Positions 1 to 6,781 of a DNA stretch of 6,781 nt are shown piece after piece; position 1 is the first letter of the stretch, and every line of letters begins with the position of its first letter. This stretch comes from Aquisalimonas sp. (lineage in GTDB: Bacteria > Pseudomonadota > Gammaproteobacteria > Nitrococcales > Aquisalimonadaceae), in assembly GCA_007133445.1 (NCBI GenBank), contig SLMR01000092.1:1-6781 (forward strand), written 5' to 3'. The notes below the pieces were generated by a model, which was not told the DNA's origin, made no database searches, and saw only the letters and a program-made list of their open reading frames with translations. The position numbers and the translations under genes were made by a program.

Positions 1-1639
1 CGTCCTGGAGCTGATCGATTTCCAGATCCAGATGCAGGGTGGTGAAGGGGTAGTCCCGGAACAGGGGCAGCAGCTCCAGGAGATCGTCCCGGTGTTCGGC
101 GAGGATCCAGTGCGGGTCGCCGAGCAGCAGTTCGGCGTCAATGCCGGCGGCCGCCAGGCGGTGCAGGAGTTCGCGCAGCCAGGCGTCCCGGCCCCGTTCG
201 AGCTCCTCGACCTGGTCCGGCGAGAAGGAGAGCAGGACGCGGGTGACGCCAAGTTCGTGGAGTTCGTCCAGATAGTCCGGGTCGCCGTCCACGCGCTCGG
301 CGAACCGGCCGGACGCCCAGACGTAGAACCCCATGGTGGCTTCGGTGCCCGGGCGCAGCGATGTCTGCAGGGGCGGTGTGGTGGTGGTCATGGGGCAGTC
401 CGGGGTGGCCAGGGGCTCCAGGGGCACGCGCGCGCGCAGCCAGGTGCGTTCGCGCTCGATGCGCTCCCGGGCGCGCCCGTACCAGGTGACGCCGTTGCGC
501 AGGGTGGTGAGCAGGTCATCGTCCATTTCAGCCCGCGCGCGCAGCGCCGATTCGCGCCAGGTCGTACGGGTGTGGCGCAGGCGATGGCCGGCGGTGTCCC
601 GCTGGCGCGTCTCGCGCTCAAGACGGGCCAGGTCGTCACTGACATCGCCGATCATCGCCTGTCTCGCGGAGGCGAGCTGGTGCTGCAGGCGGTTCACCTC
701 GGCATTGCGGACCTCGCGCCGCTGATTCCGGGCCTGGCCCAGAGAGAGCGGCATGTCGAACGTGATGCCGACGCTGGTTTCGTCGCCGCGATCGCGCCAG
801 TCATCCAGGTTCTGCCCGTGGGCCACCACGAAGTTCGTGTTGACCTCGTCCAGCAGCGGGGACTGCGGGCGCTCCAGCAGCAGCGAGAGCTCCTCCTGCG
901 TCGACTGGACGCGCGGGTCGTGGCGTTCCATGGCCTGCAGGAGTGCGTCCTCGCGGGTGCACATGGGCGTCGCGCCGGGCCAGACCGGCTCGAAGGCGGG
1001 CAGCTCACGGCCGAGCAGGCTGCCGAGCTCGCGCAGGGCAGCCCGTTTGTCGCCGCGGGCGGAATGGAGGTCGTCTTCGGCTTCGCGCAGGGCGAGGTCC
1101 ACCTCGGCCAGTTCGGAGCTGCGCACGGCGCCAGCGCCGCGATCCGCCAGAGGCGCGGCGGCTTCTTCCAGCACCTCCCGCCACTCCGCGGCCAGGCGTT
1201 CCAGCCGCCAGTGCGCCCAGTAATCGGCGTAGGCCGCCCGGAACTGCGCCCGCAGCGCCTCCAGGTCGGTATCGAGCTCGCCCTGCTGCTGGATGGCGGC
1301 GCGGTCAAGCTGCTCCAGGGCGCGGCGCTGCGGTGCCTGGCCGCCGAGGATGGGGTAGCGCAGGCCCACCTGGCCGCGAAGCTGCTCGAAGCGGCGGCTC
1401 TGGTCCCGGTCGATGATCTCGTTGACGGACGCCACGTCCGCCCCGCCGAAGAGCTGCCAGCCGCCCTCGGTCTCCTGGCGCCGGCGCTGCTGGTTGATGA
1501 GGTCCACGTCGGCGCGGGACGCCATGGCCGCCGGTGCCGTGAGCAGCTCCGTCTCCAGGGTCTCGCGCTCCAGCGGCGGTGCCGCGCCGGCAGCCGGGCT
1601 GATGAGGAGGACAATGACGAGGGATGCAAACCAGCGCAT
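1..1639 (-). CDS. TolC-family outer-membrane protein fused to a TIM-barrel-like C-terminal domain (partial, runs off left edge)
   Basis: The minus frame from the ATG at 1639 has no stop down to base 2, giving at least 546 residues. Residues 1-19 form a signal peptide (short basic start, hydrophobic LVIVLLI core, AAGA cleavage region). Residues ~20-400 look like the TolC/OprM fold: two halves of long Ala/Leu/Glu/Arg-rich helices, each with an amphipathic strand (GQVGLRYPIL around 89-98, VGITFDMPLS around 290-299). A Pro/Thr-rich linker (TTTT at 418-421) leads to a second domain from residue 436, starting GFYVWAS, with alternating strands and helices, GDPHW at 507-511 and HLDLEID at 536-542. 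Acidic residues at a strand end suggest a TIM-barrel hydrolase, perhaps a glycoside hydrolase; this is inference. TolC proteins usually end near 420-480 residues, so the extra domain is unusual. The start lies 5 bases after the glycosyltransferase stop, so translation is probably coupled. Likely role: polymer export across the outer membrane. The TolC part is fairly sure, the second domain is not. Confidence 0.85.
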   Translation of the reverse strand, partial: MRWFASLVIVLLISPAAGAAPPLERETLETELLTAPAAMASRADVDLINQQRRRQETEGGWQLFGGADVASVNEIIDRDQSRRFEQLRGQVGLRYPILGGQAPQRRALEQLDRAAIQQQGELDTDLEALRAQFRAAYADYWAHWRLERLAAEWREVLEEAAAPLADRGAGAVRSSELAEVDLALREAEDDLHSARGDKRAALRELGSLLGRELPAFEPVWPGATPMCTREDALLQAMERHDPRVQSTQEELSLLLERPQSPLLDEVNTNFVVAHGQNLDDWRDRGDETSVGITFDMPLSLGQARNQRREVRNAEVNRLQHQLASARQAMIGDVSDDLARLERETRQRDTAGHRLRHTRTTWRESALRARAEMDDDLLTTLRNGVTWYGRARERIERERTWLRARVPLEPLATPDCPMTTTTPPLQTSLRPGTEATMGFYVWASGRFAERVDGDPDYLDELHELGVTRVLLSFSPDQVEELERGRDAWLRELLHRLAAAGIDAELLLGDPHWILAEHRDDLLELLPLFRDYPFTTLHLDLEIDQLQD

Positions 1640-1644
1640 GGGAC

Positions 1645-2991
1645 TCAGTAGCGATTCCGTTTCAATACCCACCACGGCGCCATGCTGGTGTCGTTGTGGT
1701 TGGTGAGGAAGATCTCCGCCAGGGTGGCCACCGCCGCCCATAGCCGGAGTGCGAAGTTGTAGAAGGGGAACAGGAACACCATCGGCAGCAGCCGCGCATC
1801 GGTGCGCCTGCGCTCCGAGAGCCCGAGCCAGCCCACCAGGTAGAACACGAGCGTGACGCCGAGGTAGAACGTGTACACGAGCAGCAGCGTGGCCAGGATC
1901 GGAATCAGCGGCAGGGTGAAGGCCATCCACACGGTGTAGAACAGGATCACGAACGGCATCACCAACTGGAACAGCAGCCCGTACCAGATGGTCACCAGCA
2001 GGTTCGGCCAGCCCAGGATACGCGGCGAGAACGCGGCGCGGTGCTTGCGAACGTAGATGTAGAAGAGATCCCCGTCCCAGCGCAGCCGTTGCTGCAGCAG
2101 GCTGCGGAAGGTGCCGGGGACATCGGTGTGGCCCACCGCGCGGGGCTCGAACACCACGCGCCGGTTCCGGTAGCGGCCGAAGTAGCGCTTGATGCGCAGG
2201 GTGAGGTCCAGATCCTCGGCGCTGCCGGTGTCCCAGCCCCCCACGGTGGTCAGTACACTGCGCCGGAACACCCCGAATGCGCCCGAGACGTTGTTCACCA
2301 CGTTGAACTCGGCCAGCCCGACCCGCGCGGAATGGATGGAGATGAGGTACTCCAGCGCCTGCAGCCGGGTGCACAGGCTCTGGGTGCGGTTGCGAACCCG
2401 CAGAGAGCCGGCCAGGGCCATGACTGTCGGGTCCCGGAAGCGGGCCACGGCCATGTCCACCATGTCGTTGTCGAACGAGGTATCCCCATCCAGGGCCATG
2501 ATGATCTCGCCGCGGCTCAGGTGCAGCCCGGTATTCAGGGTGGAGACCCGGCCTCCGCGCTGCCACTTGGGGATGATCTTCAGGCGCCGCCGCGGGTAGC
2601 GTGCGGCGGTGGCCTGAAGCTGGCGCAGGGCGCGCAGCGTCTCGCCGTTCTGGCTGGCGCCGTCCACCACGGCGAGAATCTCGATCTCGCCGGGGTAGAG
2701 CTGCTCCAGCAGGGTTTCGATGGTGCCGCGGACGGCATCGCCCTCGCTGTAGCAGGTGATGACACAACTCACCAGCGGCCGGTAGTCCGCGCTCGGTGCC
2801 GGCGCGCGCTTCGGCCCGCGGAAGCGGTACAGGCAGATGCCGAGGAAGATCAGCAGATAAAGCGGCAGTTCGATGAAGAGCACGAACGGGATGAGCCGCA
2901 GCAGGACGTACCGCACCTCCCCGAGGTCGGCAGCCAGGGTGGCGAAGTAGAACAGGAGTTCGCTGGCCAGGCCATCAAGCACCGCCTGCAC
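1645..2991 (-). CDS. Membrane-bound processive family 2 glycosyltransferase (exopolysaccharide synthase)
   Basis: This 448-residue protein resembles the catalytic core of BcsA, PgaC and hyaluronan synthase enzymes, which polymerise a nucleotide sugar on the cytoplasmic face and pass the chain through the inner membrane. An N-terminal hydrophobic segment lies at ~33-55. The GT-A domain carries the processive-enzyme signatures in order: VVDG (Asp110), DGD (168-170, metal and UDP-sugar binding), EDLD (259-262, place of the TED catalytic base) and QRLRW (301-305, acceptor binding). Further membrane segments follow at about 327-352, 354-388 and 403-428. No PilZ domain is attached, unlike BcsA, so any c-di-GMP control must come from a partner. 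The start is the GTG at 2991, inside the end of the upstream gene (17-base overlap); no clear Shine-Dalgarno precedes it, which suits coupled translation, and GTG at 2982 is an alternative. Family and processivity are well supported; the sugar and polymer cannot be told from the sequence. Confidence 0.93.
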   Translation of the reverse strand: MQAVLDGLASELLFYFATLAADLGEVRYVLLRLIPFVLFIELPLYLLIFLGICLYRFRGPKRAPAPSADYRPLVSCVITCYSEGDAVRGTIETLLEQLYPGEIEILAVVDGASQNGETLRALRQLQATAARYPRRRLKIIPKWQRGGRVSTLNTGLHLSRGEIIMALDGDTSFDNDMVDMAVARFRDPTVMALAGSLRVRNRTQSLCTRLQALEYLISIHSARVGLAEFNVVNNVSGAFGVFRRSVLTTVGGWDTGSAEDLDLTLRIKRYFGRYRNRRVVFEPRAVGHTDVPGTFRSLLQQRLRWDGDLFYIYVRKHRAAFSPRILGWPNLLVTIWYGLLFQLVMPFVILFYTVWMAFTLPLIPILATLLLVYTFYLGVTLVFYLVGWLGLSERRRTDARLLPMVFLFPFYNFALRLWAAVATLAEIFLTNHNDTSMAPWWVLKRNRY

Positions 2992-4399
2992 CCGCCATGC
3001 TCGCGTCCAGCCGCTGCATCAGTCCGCTGCCGCTGTAGTCGCCGATATCTGGCGTGTCCCGCGAAACGAGGACCTGGGCCTGGAACTCCATACCCGCCGA
3101 GCGCAGGGACTCACTGGCCTGGGTGAGCTCCTCCAGCCGTTCCAGGAACAGGCGGCTGCCTTTTGCATCCGTCTGGGGCAGCAGCAGCCAGAAGTCCTGC
3201 TCCCGGGTGCGGGTGCACAGGTCGCTGGTGCGTACGAGTTCCTGCAGCCGCTCCGCGAAGCCGTACAGCAGCATGCTCAGCCGGCCCCGGCCGAGCCCGT
3301 CGGCCAGTTCCTCGAGGTTGGTGAGCTGGATCAGCAACAGGCTGAAGTGACACGCCTCGTGGCGGCTCACGACTTGAGCTTGCCACTGCAGAACGTGCTC
3401 GAACACCGGCAGGCGCAGATACTGGTTCTGATCGAAAATGTCGGCCAGGTCACCGGCGTCCCCGTGGAGGGCCAGCATGCGGCCGTAGTCGGTGAGCCGG
3501 TAGCTTGCGATCTCCCGGACCACCAGCTCGTCGGTGGTCGAGGTATCGTTGCACACCGCGCACCGGGCGAGCACGTCCGGTTCGGCGAACATCTCGCCAC
3601 AGGCACCGCAACTGTGGTTCTCCAGCGGGCGGTCGTAGTCCGTGCCGATGTGCCGCAGGCGGGTGCGGCAGTTGGGGCAGGTCATGGCGCCGCCGGTGAG
3701 GAACGTGCGCTGGCTGCCCACATGGCCGCAGGTAAAGCAGTGCAAGGCCTCGTCCCGCTGCAGCTCCAGGCTGTGGCAGGCGGGGCAGGTGTCCACGAAG
3801 ACGAGGTGGGCACTGGAGCACGAGGGGCACAGCCGCAGGCGCTCCACGAGCTGCTCCCGGGCAATGGCGCCGCGGCTGCTCAGGACGTTGAGCAGGTGCA
3901 GTCCGTCGCCACCGCTCAGGCAGCGCAGCAGCGGGTAGTAGTAGAGTTCCCGTGTCTGCCAGTCGCGTACCGGGTGGAGGGGCTGGTCGCCACGCAGGAG
4001 CAGGTATGCCAGCAGCCGTTCATCGGGTGTCTCCGGGGAGGCGGTCCAGGAGGCAGTGACCTCGCCCCAGAACCCGCGGGCCCGTTCCTCGGTGGTGCCC
4101 AGGTCCGTGACGAAGGCGTCCACAAGGCTGTCCAGCTCGGCGCGTTGCGGGCTGGCGTCCAGGTCATCGGGGCGTTCCGCGAATAACGGGAAGTAGCCGT
4201 GCCGGTCGTCGGCGCGAAGCGCACGCACAGTATCCATCAGCCTCGCTGAGTCGAGGCCGACCGCAAGAAAAGCGCGGGGTGATTCGTTCGGGACCGGTTC
4301 CGGGGACAGGGCCTGGAGCGCCTGCCGATCCAGGCGACTGGCCGAAATATCCCCGAGAACCACAAGGCCCGCCCCGTGGCTCCAGCGTGTATCCGTCAT
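2975..4399 (-). CDS. TackOD1-type zinc-ribbon protein with degenerate GGDEF domain; likely regulator of the exopolysaccharide operon
   Basis: This is a cytoplasmic protein of 474 residues with no membrane segment. Residues ~10-100 have alternating strands and helices like a receiver-type domain without an obvious phospho-acceptor. Residues ~160-300 hold six CxxC pairs (191/194, 205/208, 221/224, 241/244, 264/267, 280/283), enough for about three zinc sites, with the IGTDYDRP stretch at 251-258; the pattern matches what I recall of the TackOD1 domain (thaumarchaeal output domain 1). Residues ~345-450 follow a GGDEF fold, but the catalytic signature reads REQDF (399-403), followed by WLLLP, so cyclase activity is probably lost. 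RTSD (390-393) sits five residues before it, the normal place of the RxxD inhibitory site, so c-di-GMP binding is possible, as in PelD. It is the first gene of the operon and overlaps the synthase gene. A GAGAAG stretch 7 bases before the ATG may be its ribosome site. The regulatory role is inferred. Confidence 0.9.
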   Translation of the reverse strand: MTDTRWSHGAGLVVLGDISASRLDRQALQALSPEPVPNESPRAFLAVGLDSARLMDTVRALRADDRHGYFPLFAERPDDLDASPQRAELDSLVDAFVTDLGTTEERARGFWGEVTASWTASPETPDERLLAYLLLRGDQPLHPVRDWQTRELYYYPLLRCLSGGDGLHLLNVLSSRGAIAREQLVERLRLCPSCSSAHLVFVDTCPACHSLELQRDEALHCFTCGHVGSQRTFLTGGAMTCPNCRTRLRHIGTDYDRPLENHSCGACGEMFAEPDVLARCAVCNDTSTTDELVVREIASYRLTDYGRMLALHGDAGDLADIFDQNQYLRLPVFEHVLQWQAQVVSRHEACHFSLLLIQLTNLEELADGLGRGRLSMLLYGFAERLQELVRTSDLCTRTREQDFWLLLPQTDAKGSRLFLERLEELTQASESLRSAGMEFQAQVLVSRDTPDIGDYSGSGLMQRLDASMAGAGGA

Positions 4400-4665: not shown

Positions 4666-4688
4666 GGTGCATCGAGATGCACCCTACG
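4666..4688 (-). repeat. REP-like palindrome, inverted copy
   Basis: The stem GGTGCATC/GATGCACC (4666-4673 with 4676-4683) closes around a 2-base spacer and is followed by CTACG, so on the minus strand it begins CGTAG. It is an exact 23-base inverted copy of 4782-4804 and faces the element at 4606-4627, giving the head-out pair typical of BIME-like units. Confidence 0.75.
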
Positions 4689-4707
4689 CGGGCCTCACCA
4701 CCGGTGG

Positions 4708-4729
4708 GTGGGGTGCGTCTCGATCTATC
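4708..4729 (+). repeat. Decayed REP-like copy
   Basis: This stretch matches the 22-base element at 4783-4804 at 17 of 22 positions in the same orientation. The head reads GTGG instead of GTAG and the far arm of the hairpin has lost pairing, so it looks like an old, degenerating copy. A perfect 10-base palindrome, CCACCGGTGG (4698-4707), directly precedes it. Confidence 0.5.
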
Positions 4730-4781
4730 ATCAATGAACCGGCCGAATATACGGAGTGTCACAGGGGCAGGGTTCCGGCCC

Positions 4782-4804
4782 CGTAGGGTGCATCTCGATG
4801 CACC
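4782..4804 (+). repeat. REP-like palindrome, GTAG head, next to the iscA-like gene
   Basis: GTAG (4783-4786) is followed by the hairpin GGTGCATC/GATGCACC (4787-4794 with 4797-4804). It is the exact inverted mate of 4666-4688. It lies 20 bases after the iscA-like stop codon and would form a hairpin in that 3' untranslated RNA, possibly protecting the end or aiding termination, though no T-run follows. Confidence 0.75.
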
Positions 4805-4824: not shown

Positions 4825-5148
4825 CTACACCGTGAAACTCTCCCCACACCCACACGCATCCTTCACGTTCGGGTTGCGGAACTCCAACCGGTGATTCAGC
4901 CCGTCCCGCACGAAGTCCACCTCCATGCCGTCCAGGAACGGGAGGCTCTTGCGGCTGATCACGACCTTGACGCCGTGCTGCTCGTGGACGGTGTCGTTGT
5001 CCTGCACGTCGTCGGCGTAATCCACGGTGTACATGAAACCGGAGCAACCGCTGGTACGCACACCCAGGCGCAGGCTCGAGGGCCTGCCGTTCTTGTCCGC
5101 CTGCATGCGCACGTGCCGCGCTGCCGCTTCGGTGAGCTGGATGGTCAT
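4825..5148 (-). CDS. iscA: A-type iron-sulfur cluster carrier, IscA/SufA family
   Basis: This 107-residue protein is the same length as E. coli IscA. Family hallmarks are LRLGVRTSGCSGF (26-38), KSLPFLDG (67-74), NPNVKDACGCGESF (92-105) and the three cluster-binding cysteines Cys35, Cys99 and Cys101. A-type carriers accept Fe-S clusters (or iron) from the scaffold and deliver them to apo-proteins in the cytoplasm. RTSGCSG and FLDG are closer to IscA/SufA than to ErpA. The start is the ATG at 5148, because AAGGAG (5160-5155) lies 6 bases before it; an in-frame ATG at 5172 would add eight residues but would place this ribosome site inside the gene. No other isc or suf gene is next to it, so it is a solitary copy and may not be the housekeeping IscA; the symbol marks the family rather than proven orthology. 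Confidence 0.93.
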   Translation of the reverse strand: MTIQLTEAAARHVRMQADKNGRPSSLRLGVRTSGCSGFMYTVDYADDVQDNDTVHEQHGVKVVISRKSLPFLDGMEVDFVRDGLNHRLEFRNPNVKDACGCGESFTV

Positions 5149-5154
5149 GGGCCA

Positions 5155-5180
5155 CTCCTTCCTGGCTGCCAATTGCCAGG
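5155..5180 (-). promoter_or_regulatory. Ribosome binding site of the iscA-like gene with an abutting hairpin
   Basis: On the minus strand AAGGAG (5160-5155) is a near-perfect Shine-Dalgarno sequence 6 bases from the ATG at 5148. Directly upstream, with no gap, CCTGGC (5180-5175) and GCCAGG (5166-5161) form a 6-bp stem with an 8-base loop. The RNA hairpin would end right at the ribosome site and could affect ribosome access or RNA stability. The ribosome site is secure, the hairpin's function is a guess. Confidence 0.7.
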
Positions 5181-5321: not shown

Positions 5322-5801
5322 TTAGAGAATCGAGGTACAGTTGTTGGCGAATCCATCCGGAACGGACGTCTGGCAAACCCAACTGCCCGTGGGGACTGTG
5401 GCGTCATCGTTCACGCCGAACGTGTAGCGTACGCGTTGATCACGCAGGTTCATGTTGGCCTGCGTCGCCGCGCCGTTGGTTCGACGCTCGCCGAAGGTGT
5501 ACTCGATCCAGAACTCCGGCTCGCCGCTCCAGCCGCTGGTGTCCGTGATCACGCCGTGCTGCCCGTCCAGACGCCAGCCGAGCTGTTCCCGTGCTGCCTC
5601 CAGATCCGGCTCGATCTGTCGCCCGAGAAGGATGTGTGTCTGGATGCCGGGTCGGGTTCCGGCCAGCAGGGTATGTGCCTCCGAGAACTGTGCCCGTGCG
5701 ACGTAGCGTTCGTACTGTGGAATGGCAATGCTGGCAAGGATTCCGATGACGGCGACGACAATCATCAGTTCGATGAGAGTGAAACCCTTTGTTGTGTTCA
5801 T
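5322..5801 (-). CDS. Type IV pilin, PilA-like prepilin
   Basis: This 159-residue prepilin begins with a six-residue leader ending Lys-Gly, followed by [20 protein letters not shown]. Prepilin peptidase (PilD) would cut after Gly6 and methylate the new Phe. Glu11 is the conserved Glu5 of the mature pilin. The hydrophobic helix (7-29) anchors the subunit and packs the pilus core. The rest is a globular head with Cys143 and Cys155, likely the C-terminal disulfide loop (D-region) of type IVa pilins. The mature size of 153 residues fits a major pilin, but no pilB, pilC, pilD or minor pilin genes adjoin it, so it could be an orphan or minor pilin. AAGAGA directly before the ATG is a weak ribosome site. 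A strong hairpin follows the stop. The pilZ-type gene lies just upstream, 75 bases away. I leave the symbol empty because pilA versus another pilin cannot be decided. Confidence 0.93.
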
Positions 5802-5876: not shown

Positions 5877-6281
5877 CTAGGGCGTGATGCGGTCCGTGGC
5901 GCGGAGGTCCCACTGCTGGAGGTCGGGCACGAAGCCGTTCTCGATCTCGCCGTCGATGGTGGACCGGTGCCTGGGCTGGCGGCCCAGCAGGCGATACAGG
6001 TCGGCGAAGTCCTCCACGTGGACGGCGTCGAAGGTGACTCCGCAGACGCCGCGGCGCACGTAGGCCACACGACCGACCAGGGTCAGGGAGAGCAGGGCAT
6101 CGTGTTCCGCCTGCAGCACGAGTATGGCCCGCTCCTGTTCACGCAGGCCGTGGTCCAGGCATTCCAGGCTGGCGCCGCGCAGGGAGAGGTCGCGAGTGAC
6201 GACGCGGATCTCCGGCCGGGCATTCACGATCAGCCGTCCAGGGAGTCCCATGCGGAAACGGTGGTTCTGCCTGTCCCGCAT
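5877..6281 (-). CDS. Single-domain PilZ protein, c-di-GMP receptor
   Basis: With the ATG at 6281 the protein has 134 residues, nearly all one PilZ domain. Both c-di-GMP-binding motifs are intact: RxxxR as RQNHR (4-8) and DxSxxG as DLSLRG (31-36), followed by beta strands (LTLVGRVAYVRR, GVCGVTF). The C-terminal ~30 residues are acidic and of unknown role. Such proteins bind c-di-GMP in the cytoplasm and pass the signal to a partner, often one acting in motility, pili or polysaccharide synthesis. The frame is open up to 6464, giving a 195-residue alternative, but the added part lacks domain character. The ATG at 6281 starts right at the domain and has GGAGA 9 bases upstream, whereas ATGs at 6308 and 6464 have no clear ribosome site. 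Its neighbour is the pilin gene 75 bases downstream. Partner and target are unknown. Confidence 0.88.
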   Translation of the reverse strand: MRDRQNHRFRMGLPGRLIVNARPEIRVVTRDLSLRGASLECLDHGLREQERAILVLQAEHDALLSLTLVGRVAYVRRGVCGVTFDAVHVEDFADLYRLLGRQPRHRSTIDGEIENGFVPDLQQWDLRATDRITP

Positions 6282-6445
6282 GATTGGCGTTCTCCGTGGC
6301 CGGGTCATCTGGCAAGAATAGTTGCTGATCCGGGCGCACGATACCTGCGGGGGCATTTGGGCAAAGCCTTCGGCTGGGATGCCGCGCTGCACAGTGCGCC
6401 CGAGGTCCAGGTGGGCTGTGTCGCGTCCGGTAGTGACGTTTGTGG
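6282..6445. other. Gap between the membrane protein and PilZ genes
   Basis: This 164-base gap holds the PilZ ribosome site and the in-frame upstream extension of the PilZ reading frame (to 6464). I see no terminator and no convincing promoter. The extension could be coding if the longer PilZ start is used, but it has no recognisable domain. Confidence 0.4.
6291..6295 (-). promoter_or_regulatory. Ribosome binding site deciding the PilZ start
   Basis: GGAGA on the minus strand (6295-6291) lies 9 bases before the ATG at 6281. The upstream in-frame ATG at 6308 is preceded by a pyrimidine-rich stretch without a purine run. This favours the shorter, 134-residue PilZ protein. Confidence 0.5.
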
Positions 6446-6781
6446 TCAGTTGCCGTCGCGACACTGCTCCAGGCCGCCGGAATCATGTATCTCGTCGCTG
6501 GCCCCCGGTGACGCCTGATACGTTGAGCGCCAGCGGACGGCCAGCAAGATGATGCCGCTCAGCAGCAGTCCGGCGGCGATCAGTTCTACCGATTCCTCCA
6601 GCAGGTGATCGACCAGCAGGTAGCCCGGGGTAAAGTAGAAGTCCGGGTCGTCTTCCAGGGCTTGTTCCGATCGCTCGAAGACCCGGGACCACGCGGGCAG
6701 AGGTTGCAGGTGCAGAGCGTCGATGAGCCAGTGGCCGAGGCGGTCCTGCCATTCCGCGACCCGCCGCCAGGCCGAGCCGAA
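6446..6781 (-). CDS. C-terminal part of an unrecognised membrane protein (5' end off the window)
   Basis: The minus frame is open from the right edge (6781) to a TGA at 6446-6448, giving 111 residues. I do not recognise the family. A soluble, Trp- and acid-rich part (FYFTPGYLLVDHLLEESVEL, 48-67) leads into one clear membrane segment, LIAAGLLLSGIILLAVRW (67-84). A basic pair after it (Arg83, Arg85) suggests that the short Ser/Asp/Gly-rich tail is cytoplasmic. The residue pattern (helices, a convincing membrane segment, usual codon use) supports this frame over the overlapping open frame at 6483-6752, which is Arg/Pro-rich and featureless. The PilZ gene begins 164 bases downstream, so co-transcription is possible but not shown. 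Confidence 0.7.
   Translation of the reverse strand, partial: FGSAWRRVAEWQDRLGHWLIDALHLQPLPAWSRVFERSEQALEDDPDFYFTPGYLLVDHLLEESVELIAAGLLLSGIILLAVRWRSTYQASPGASDEIHDSGGLEQCRDGN

What the first reader, a model, noticed from the sequence alone, without database searches (positions are those of the whole stretch)
1..4399. Three-gene operon: an unfamiliar c-di-GMP/metal-gated exopolysaccharide machine
TackOD1/pseudo-GGDEF protein, processive GT2 synthase and TolC-hydrolase-like fusion are translationally coupled (17-base overlap, 5-base gap). Together they cover control, polymerisation and export, yet the set matches none of the Bcs, Pga, Alg or Pel operons I know. The synthase lacks a PilZ domain, leaving the upstream protein as the natural c-di-GMP input.
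Basis: partly seen in the sequence, partly recalled or inferred. Interest (0 to 1): 0.85.

Follow-up and report, generated by a model that had tools for sequence, protein, structure and literature searches.

The report
Mxd-type exopolysaccharide operon with exporter-tethered hydrolase
Three neighbouring genes of a halophilic bacterium form the core of a slime-making machine that is already known from Shewanella, here joined to an outer-membrane exit channel that carries its own hydrolase-like domain.

Summary
In detail: on the minus strand the window carries a TackOD1 plus degenerate-GGDEF protein, a processive GT2 synthase and a TolC plus TIM-barrel fusion (cut by the window edge), tightly coupled. 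'Control, polymerisation, export' is right in kind; 'unfamiliar' is not. The first two genes are homologues of mxdA and mxdB of Shewanella oneidensis MR-1, whose locus I identified by its plasmid and by published mxd promoter primers that match directly upstream of its TackOD1 gene. MxdA is reported to bind c-di-GMP, and mxd mutants to lose three-dimensional biofilm. The synthase stands beside TackOD1 in 46 of 47 loci fetched by TackOD1; TackOD1 precedes it in 17 of 17 fetched by the synthase. An HlyD adaptor (MxdC), beyond the window edge, is the usual further gene. None of 64 aligned regulators has GG(D/E)EF; 57 keep the RxxD c-di-GMP site. 'Metal-gated' is unsupported: the conserved Cys/His look structural. 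Different from MR-1 is the TolC-hydrolase fusion, shared with other Gammaproteobacteria, Synergistaceae and a planctomycete; that MxdA contains TackOD1 I found in no held paper. Verdict: a new variant of a known, poorly characterised system.

The parts
2975..4399 (-). MxdA-like regulator, 474 aa: N-terminal alpha/beta domain, TackOD1 multi-zinc-ribbon domain, degenerate GGDEF domain
   Evidence: Pfam; 33% identity over 323 aa to the MR-1 mxdA product, E 1e-61; AlphaFold model mean pLDDT 89.5
4055..4372 (-). N-terminal domain (residues about 10-115), receiver-like fold suggested, no family match
   Evidence: alternating strands and helices in the model; REC-GGDEF chains PleD, DgcR and WspR align over both ends of the model, but at rmsd 12-19 A
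3494..4042 (-). TackOD1 domain (residues 120-302); 12 Cys and 1 His conserved
   Evidence: PF18551 214 bits; 12 of these 13 positions 64/64, Cys208 63/64
3221..3232 (-). RTSD: RxxD at the I-site position, R390 and D393, five residues before the GGDEF position
   Evidence: R 57/64, D 62/64, further Arg421 54/64; aligned to solved GGDEF domains
3191..3205 (-). REQDF in place of GG(D/E)EF: catalytic motif lost
   Evidence: 0 of 64 rows have a canonical motif
1645..2991 (-). MxdB-like processive GT2 synthase, 448 aa, GTG start, hydrophobic segments near both ends
   Evidence: 50% identity over 415 aa to the MR-1 MxdB, E 7e-150 (47% over 441 columns); D110, D168, D170, D260, D262, Q301, R302, R304, W305 in columns at least 97% identical in 62 rows
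1..1639 (-). TolC-like outer-membrane channel fused to a TIM-barrel hydrolase-like domain; cut by the window start
1..352 (-). visible start of the hydrolase-like domain with YVW, LLLGDPHWIL and LHLDLE
   Evidence: invariant Y, W and HLDxE in alignment A4, 13 rows, the window row ending just after this motif

Best explanation
It is an Mxd-type, c-di-GMP-controlled exopolysaccharide operon of an Aquisalimonas-like gammaproteobacterium. Proposed working: c-di-GMP binds the RxxD site of the catalytically dead GGDEF domain of the MxdA-like protein (binding is reported for MxdA of MR-1, inferred here). This protein, held together by TackOD1 zinc ribbons and carrying a receiver-like N-terminus for protein contacts, switches on the MxdB-like membrane synthase encoded next to it (inferred). 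The synthase polymerises a nucleotide sugar and pushes the chain through its own membrane segments (inferred from the GT2 family). An HlyD-type adaptor encoded just left of the window (inferred from relatives) links it to the TolC channel, and the hydrolase-like domain at the end of the TolC chain trims or clears polymer at the exit (inferred).
For: TackOD1 gene directly before GT2: 17/17 GT2-fetched loci; GT2 beside TackOD1 in 46/47 TackOD1-fetched loci and HlyD in 45/47. MR-1 identity: plasmid stretch 100% to NC_004349.1, primers of the mxd promoter match at L125 9772-10075 next to the gene start at 9767, homology to the window E 1e-61 and 7e-150. MxdA reported as c-di-GMP effector and mxd mutants as biofilm-deficient (passages of PMC7666153, PMC3691769). 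I-site kept, catalytic motif lost. Relatives L002, L004 and L014 have HlyD right after TolC. A PAS-GGDEF-EAL gene follows HlyD in L058 and L060. The hydrolase profile strongly hits 10 of 369 Gammaproteobacteria, 9 in TackOD1 genomes at the same place and the tenth on a contig that ends at it beside HlyD (6 of the 10 had given rows to the profile).
Against: HlyD is not in the window. No c-di-GMP binding, polymer or complex was shown for this organism. 7 of 64 regulators lack the R of RxxD, so c-di-GMP control may not be universal. L050 has an orphan TackOD1 gene. The hydrolase-like domain matches no named family, and TIM barrels that are no glycosidases also appear among its fold matches. The polymer is unknown, in Shewanella too as far as the passages I read say.
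Confidence: 0.78

Rival explanations
1. An undescribed exopolysaccharide class with no characterised relative.
For: Gene set fits none of Bcs, Pga, Alg or Pel; no TolC-hydrolase match at the MR-1 mxd locus; a 2021 review of c-di-GMP-controlled exopolysaccharides has no occurrence of 'mxd'.
Against: Clear homology and same gene order as the published mxdABC.
Confidence: 0.1
2. A PNAG-like (Pga/Ica/Hms) system in which other proteins replace PgaA, PgaB and PgaD.
For: PgaC/IcaA is the best NCBIfam model for both the window synthase (150.6 bits) and MxdB (133.6 bits); chitinases among the fold matches of the hydrolase-like domain.
Against: Far below the 422.3-bit cut-off; no PgaA, PgaB or PgaD match in the three genes; different exporter type.
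Confidence: 0.15
3. The TackOD1 protein senses metal or redox state, and the GGDEF remnant is only structural.
For: 12 Cys and 1 His essentially invariant; 7 of 64 rows lack the R of RxxD.
Against: Cys pattern typical of structural zinc ribbons (family knowledge); MxdA is reported to bind c-di-GMP; RxxD far better kept than the catalytic motif.
Confidence: 0.12
4. A TolC-HlyD efflux or secretion system for a small molecule or glycolipid made by the GT2 enzyme.
For: HlyD relatives score best against multidrug adaptor models, below cut-off; HlyD and TolC are shared with efflux.
Against: No RND, ABC or MFS pump gene was seen to recur in the gene maps (not searched for by profile); QxxRW motif and processive-GT2 relatives; mxd phenotypes are biofilm and aggregation.
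Confidence: 0.06

Closest known systems
Mxd system (mxdABCD) of Shewanella oneidensis MR-1
   Same: MxdA (TackOD1; GGDEF match at 22.5 bits, just under the 23.8 cut-off; RVTD kept and TRDGL in place of GGDEF as I read the protein), MxdB GT2 50% identical over 415 aa, HlyD-type MxdC, same order
   Different: No TolC-hydrolase match at the MR-1 locus; the next same-strand frame after mxdC is a 122-aa frame without Pfam match, perhaps mxdD
Pel system, regulator PelD
   Same: Degenerate GGDEF with RxxD as c-di-GMP receptor for an exopolysaccharide operon (passage of PMC8461298)
   Different: No GAF match here; TackOD1 instead; different synthase and exporter
Pga/Ica (PNAG) synthase PgaC
   Same: Nearest curated GT2 model
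   Different: Well below cut-off; no PgaA/B/D in the three genes
Bgs mixed-linkage beta-glucan system of rhizobia
   Same: c-di-GMP-controlled GT2 synthase without a typical PilZ domain (passages of PMC5567048)
   Different: There c-di-GMP binds the synthase's own C-terminal tail; here a separate protein is the likely receptor

Membership tests
Mxd system | MxdA: homologue of the MR-1 mxdA product with degenerate GGDEF | tested here: met
   33% over 323 aa, E 1e-61; REQDF, RxxD kept
Mxd system | MxdB: GT2 synthase directly after MxdA | tested here: met
   50% over 415 aa, E 7e-150; 17-base overlap
Mxd system | MxdC: HlyD-type adaptor in the operon | not testable with these tools
   Window and its nearest relative L001 end inside gene 3; present after TolC in L002, L004 and L014 of the same family
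Mxd system | MxdA binds c-di-GMP and the operon is needed for biofilm | not testable with these tools
   Reported for MR-1; no experiment here
Pga/PNAG system | PgaC equivalog score | tested here: not met
   150.6 bits against cut-off 422.3
Pga/PNAG system | PgaA, PgaB and PgaD partners | tested here: inconclusive
   No such match in the three genes; left flank unseen, relatives show HlyD instead
Bcs cellulose system | CelA/BcsA catalytic subunit with PilZ | tested here: not met
   18.8 bits against cut-off 699.1; no PilZ in the synthase
Active diguanylate cyclase | GG(D/E)EF catalytic motif | tested here: not met
   REQDF; 0 of 64 rows canonical
c-di-GMP receptor of the degenerate-GGDEF/RxxD kind | RxxD five residues before the GGDEF position | tested here: met
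   R390, D393; position rule from a passage of PMC5567048; binding itself untested
TolC/OEP outer-membrane factor | TolC protomer fold and OEP profile | tested here: met
GH18 chitinases | GH18 profile and catalytic DxxDxDxE (motif recalled) | tested here: inconclusive

The most novel reading that the evidence does not exclude
Mxd is the founding example of a cross-phylum class of synthase-dependent exopolysaccharide systems whose signature is a TackOD1 regulator, and in one large branch the exit channel is covalently fused to a dedicated polymer-trimming enzyme, so that synthesis, export and cutting are one assembly; TackOD1, until now a domain of unknown role, would be the scaffold that couples c-di-GMP and CheY-like input to the synthase.
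Probability: 0.35. Interest if true: 0.65.

Novelty: new variant of a known kind. Interest (0 to 1): 0.45.

Why it matters
It gives an orphan domain (TackOD1) a context in bacteria, shows that the little-studied Mxd machine reaches beyond Shewanella into Synergistota, Planctomycetota, Lentisphaerota and other Gammaproteobacteria, and offers testable parts: an I-site to mutate, a hydrolase-like domain to test on Mxd polymer, and a natural TolC fusion that suggests which kind of exit channel the machine uses.

Tried and rejected
Own-genome search: no genome held for the window, so the true left flank and HlyD gene could not be read. Shewanella was sought first through the NCBIfam model DgcS in the class (0 of 369 over cut-off) and in the family of the best weak hit (0 of 98 over cut-off); both led nowhere. 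The order search then gave candidates, and DgcS over cut-off in G475 and G784 (2 of 18) led to the genus. A profile search of the protein database with A1 returned 59 proteins, most unnamed; the named ones were Legionella or Legionellaceae, apart from one Longimicrobiales protein and generic source names, and none was named Shewanella. Other rejected ideas: plain PNAG system (below cut-off); active diguanylate cyclase (motif lost); metal gating (no evidence). A search for a described TolC-hydrolase Mxd variant showed nothing relevant among the 8 of 35 papers listed; 'TackOD1' occurs in one held paper only and 'Thaumarchaeal output domain' in none. Passages of PMC12175535 proved irrelevant.

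GH18 was considered for the hydrolase-like domain and left open; in the Foldseek list its best match is a class III chitinase (4toq_B, E 1.8e-4), but a methylenetetrahydrofolate reductase and an isocitrate lyase score close to it. The N-terminal 450 residues of the distant-branch hydrolase proteins (L054, L061) have no Pfam match and were not folded.

Rows dropped before counts: of 19 Gammaproteobacteria over the TackOD1 cut-off, 14 were fetched widely, 3 were already held (L001, L006, L013) and 2 partial hits (G158, G181) were not followed, nor was a second weak copy in G300; of 24 genomes, 23 were fetched (24 loci, G773 giving two) and G745 (broken frame) was not; of 16 genomes, 9 were fetched and 3 already held, 4 were left (G793, G802, G822, G849). 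The tree used 62 of 64 GT2 rows (L059 and L103 too short). Alignment A2 holds 64 chosen rows, not all homologues.

Full report
Observation. On the minus strand the window holds, in order, an MxdA-like TackOD1/GGDEF protein (4399-2975), a GT2 synthase (2991-1645) and the first 546 codons of a TolC-like protein with a further domain (1639 to the edge). The synthase has no PilZ domain. The nearest relative found is an Aquisalimonas MAG, 91% identical in the synthase.

Neighbourhood. A pattern scan of the genome collection with the synthase, which reaches close relatives only, gave 17 loci; all 17 have the TackOD1 gene immediately before it. Independently, loci fetched by TackOD1 alone (14 from a sample of 369 Gammaproteobacteria, 24 from a sample of 345 genomes of one order, 9 from 129 genomes of one genus) have the synthase within 7 kb on the same strand in 46 of 47 and an HlyD-type gene in 45 of 47 (the samples overlap in kinship). 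L050 is the exception for the synthase: an orphan TackOD1 gene beside what I read as phosphate-regulation genes. In all 65 rows, window included, 64 have the synthase, 61 an HlyD, and 25 a TolC and/or hydrolase-like match; L001 and the window end before an HlyD gene could show. The system is not common: 19 of 369 Gammaproteobacteria, 24 of 345 genomes of the order and 16 of 129 of the genus are over the TackOD1 cut-off.

Known pathway. One genome of the genus search, G840, has contigs of 4,969,811 and 161,613 bases; the first 1000 bases of the second are 100% identical to NC_004349.1 of S. oneidensis MR-1, a record of the same length. Its only TackOD1 match lies in L125 with a GT2 gene and an HlyD gene behind it. 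Three primers that a 2013 paper used for the mxd promoter match without mismatch at 9772-10075, right before the gene start at 9767. It is therefore mxdA, and the window's genes are its homologues: 33% over 323 aa (E 1e-61) and, for mxdB, 50% over 415 aa (E 7e-150). In the passages I read, the mxd cluster is needed for three-dimensional biofilm and for aggregation, MxdB is called a glycosyl transferase, MxdC efflux-pump-like, MxdD of no known homology (PMC3691769; PMC7666153), and MxdA a c-di-GMP-binding effector that interacts with CheY3 and the cyclase PdgA (PMC7666153; PMC11395469). The primary paper on binding (Gambari 2019) was not read. The word TackOD1 occurs in one held paper, on archaeal signalling, which says the function of the domain is obscure (passages); databases do use the name for bacterial proteins.

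Synthase. Columns at least 97% identical in 62 rows include D110, D168, D170, D260, D262, Q301, R304 and W305, the motifs of processive GT2 enzymes (family knowledge). The best model is PgaC/IcaA, far below its cut-off, so a hexosamine polymer is a guess only. In L013 a GH16 gene follows HlyD, which would rather fit a beta-glucan; the polymer is open.

Conclusion. The finding is real and its functional reading largely right, but the core is a described system. New here are the variant with an exporter-tethered hydrolase-like domain, the wide spread, and the recognition that TackOD1 is a standing part of MxdA. The left flank, c-di-GMP binding by this protein, the polymer and the hydrolase's activity are not shown.

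Noticed in passing
window 4666-4804: Imperfect 26-base inverted repeat (96% complementary, arms 87 bases apart) in the gap before the operon, like dispersed REP-type elements.
   Followed up: partly
window 5880-6464, 5322-5801, 4825-5172: Upstream on the same strand: a PilZ-domain protein, a type IV pilin-like protein and an IscA-like iron-sulfur protein. The PilZ protein could be another c-di-GMP receptor, perhaps of the pilus.
   Followed up: no
L013:12316-13224: A GH16 gene follows the HlyD gene in a Legionellales MAG, a hint at a beta-glucan substrate.
   Followed up: no
   Followed up: partly
L011: The locus labelled Methanomethylovorans (an archaeon) groups tightly with Synergistaceae; probably a misplaced contig of that MAG.
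   Followed up: no
L141:6269-7405 and L142:7046-7975: Separate relatives of the hydrolase-like domain, each with a GT2 gene 3-4 kb away and no TackOD1 match in the stretch: maybe another polysaccharide system.
   Followed up: no
P0122-P0171: Many Legionella proteins, some from L. pneumophila, have TackOD1; in L. jamestowniensis (L051) the gene stands before GT2 and HlyD genes. In L. busanensis and Legionella sp. D16C41 one such protein is about 755 aa long, perhaps a fusion.
   Followed up: partly
L059:5680-7119: Hydrolase-like and weak HlyD-like matches in one frame upstream of the TackOD1 gene, and the synthase in two frames; fusion or decay not resolved.
   Followed up: no
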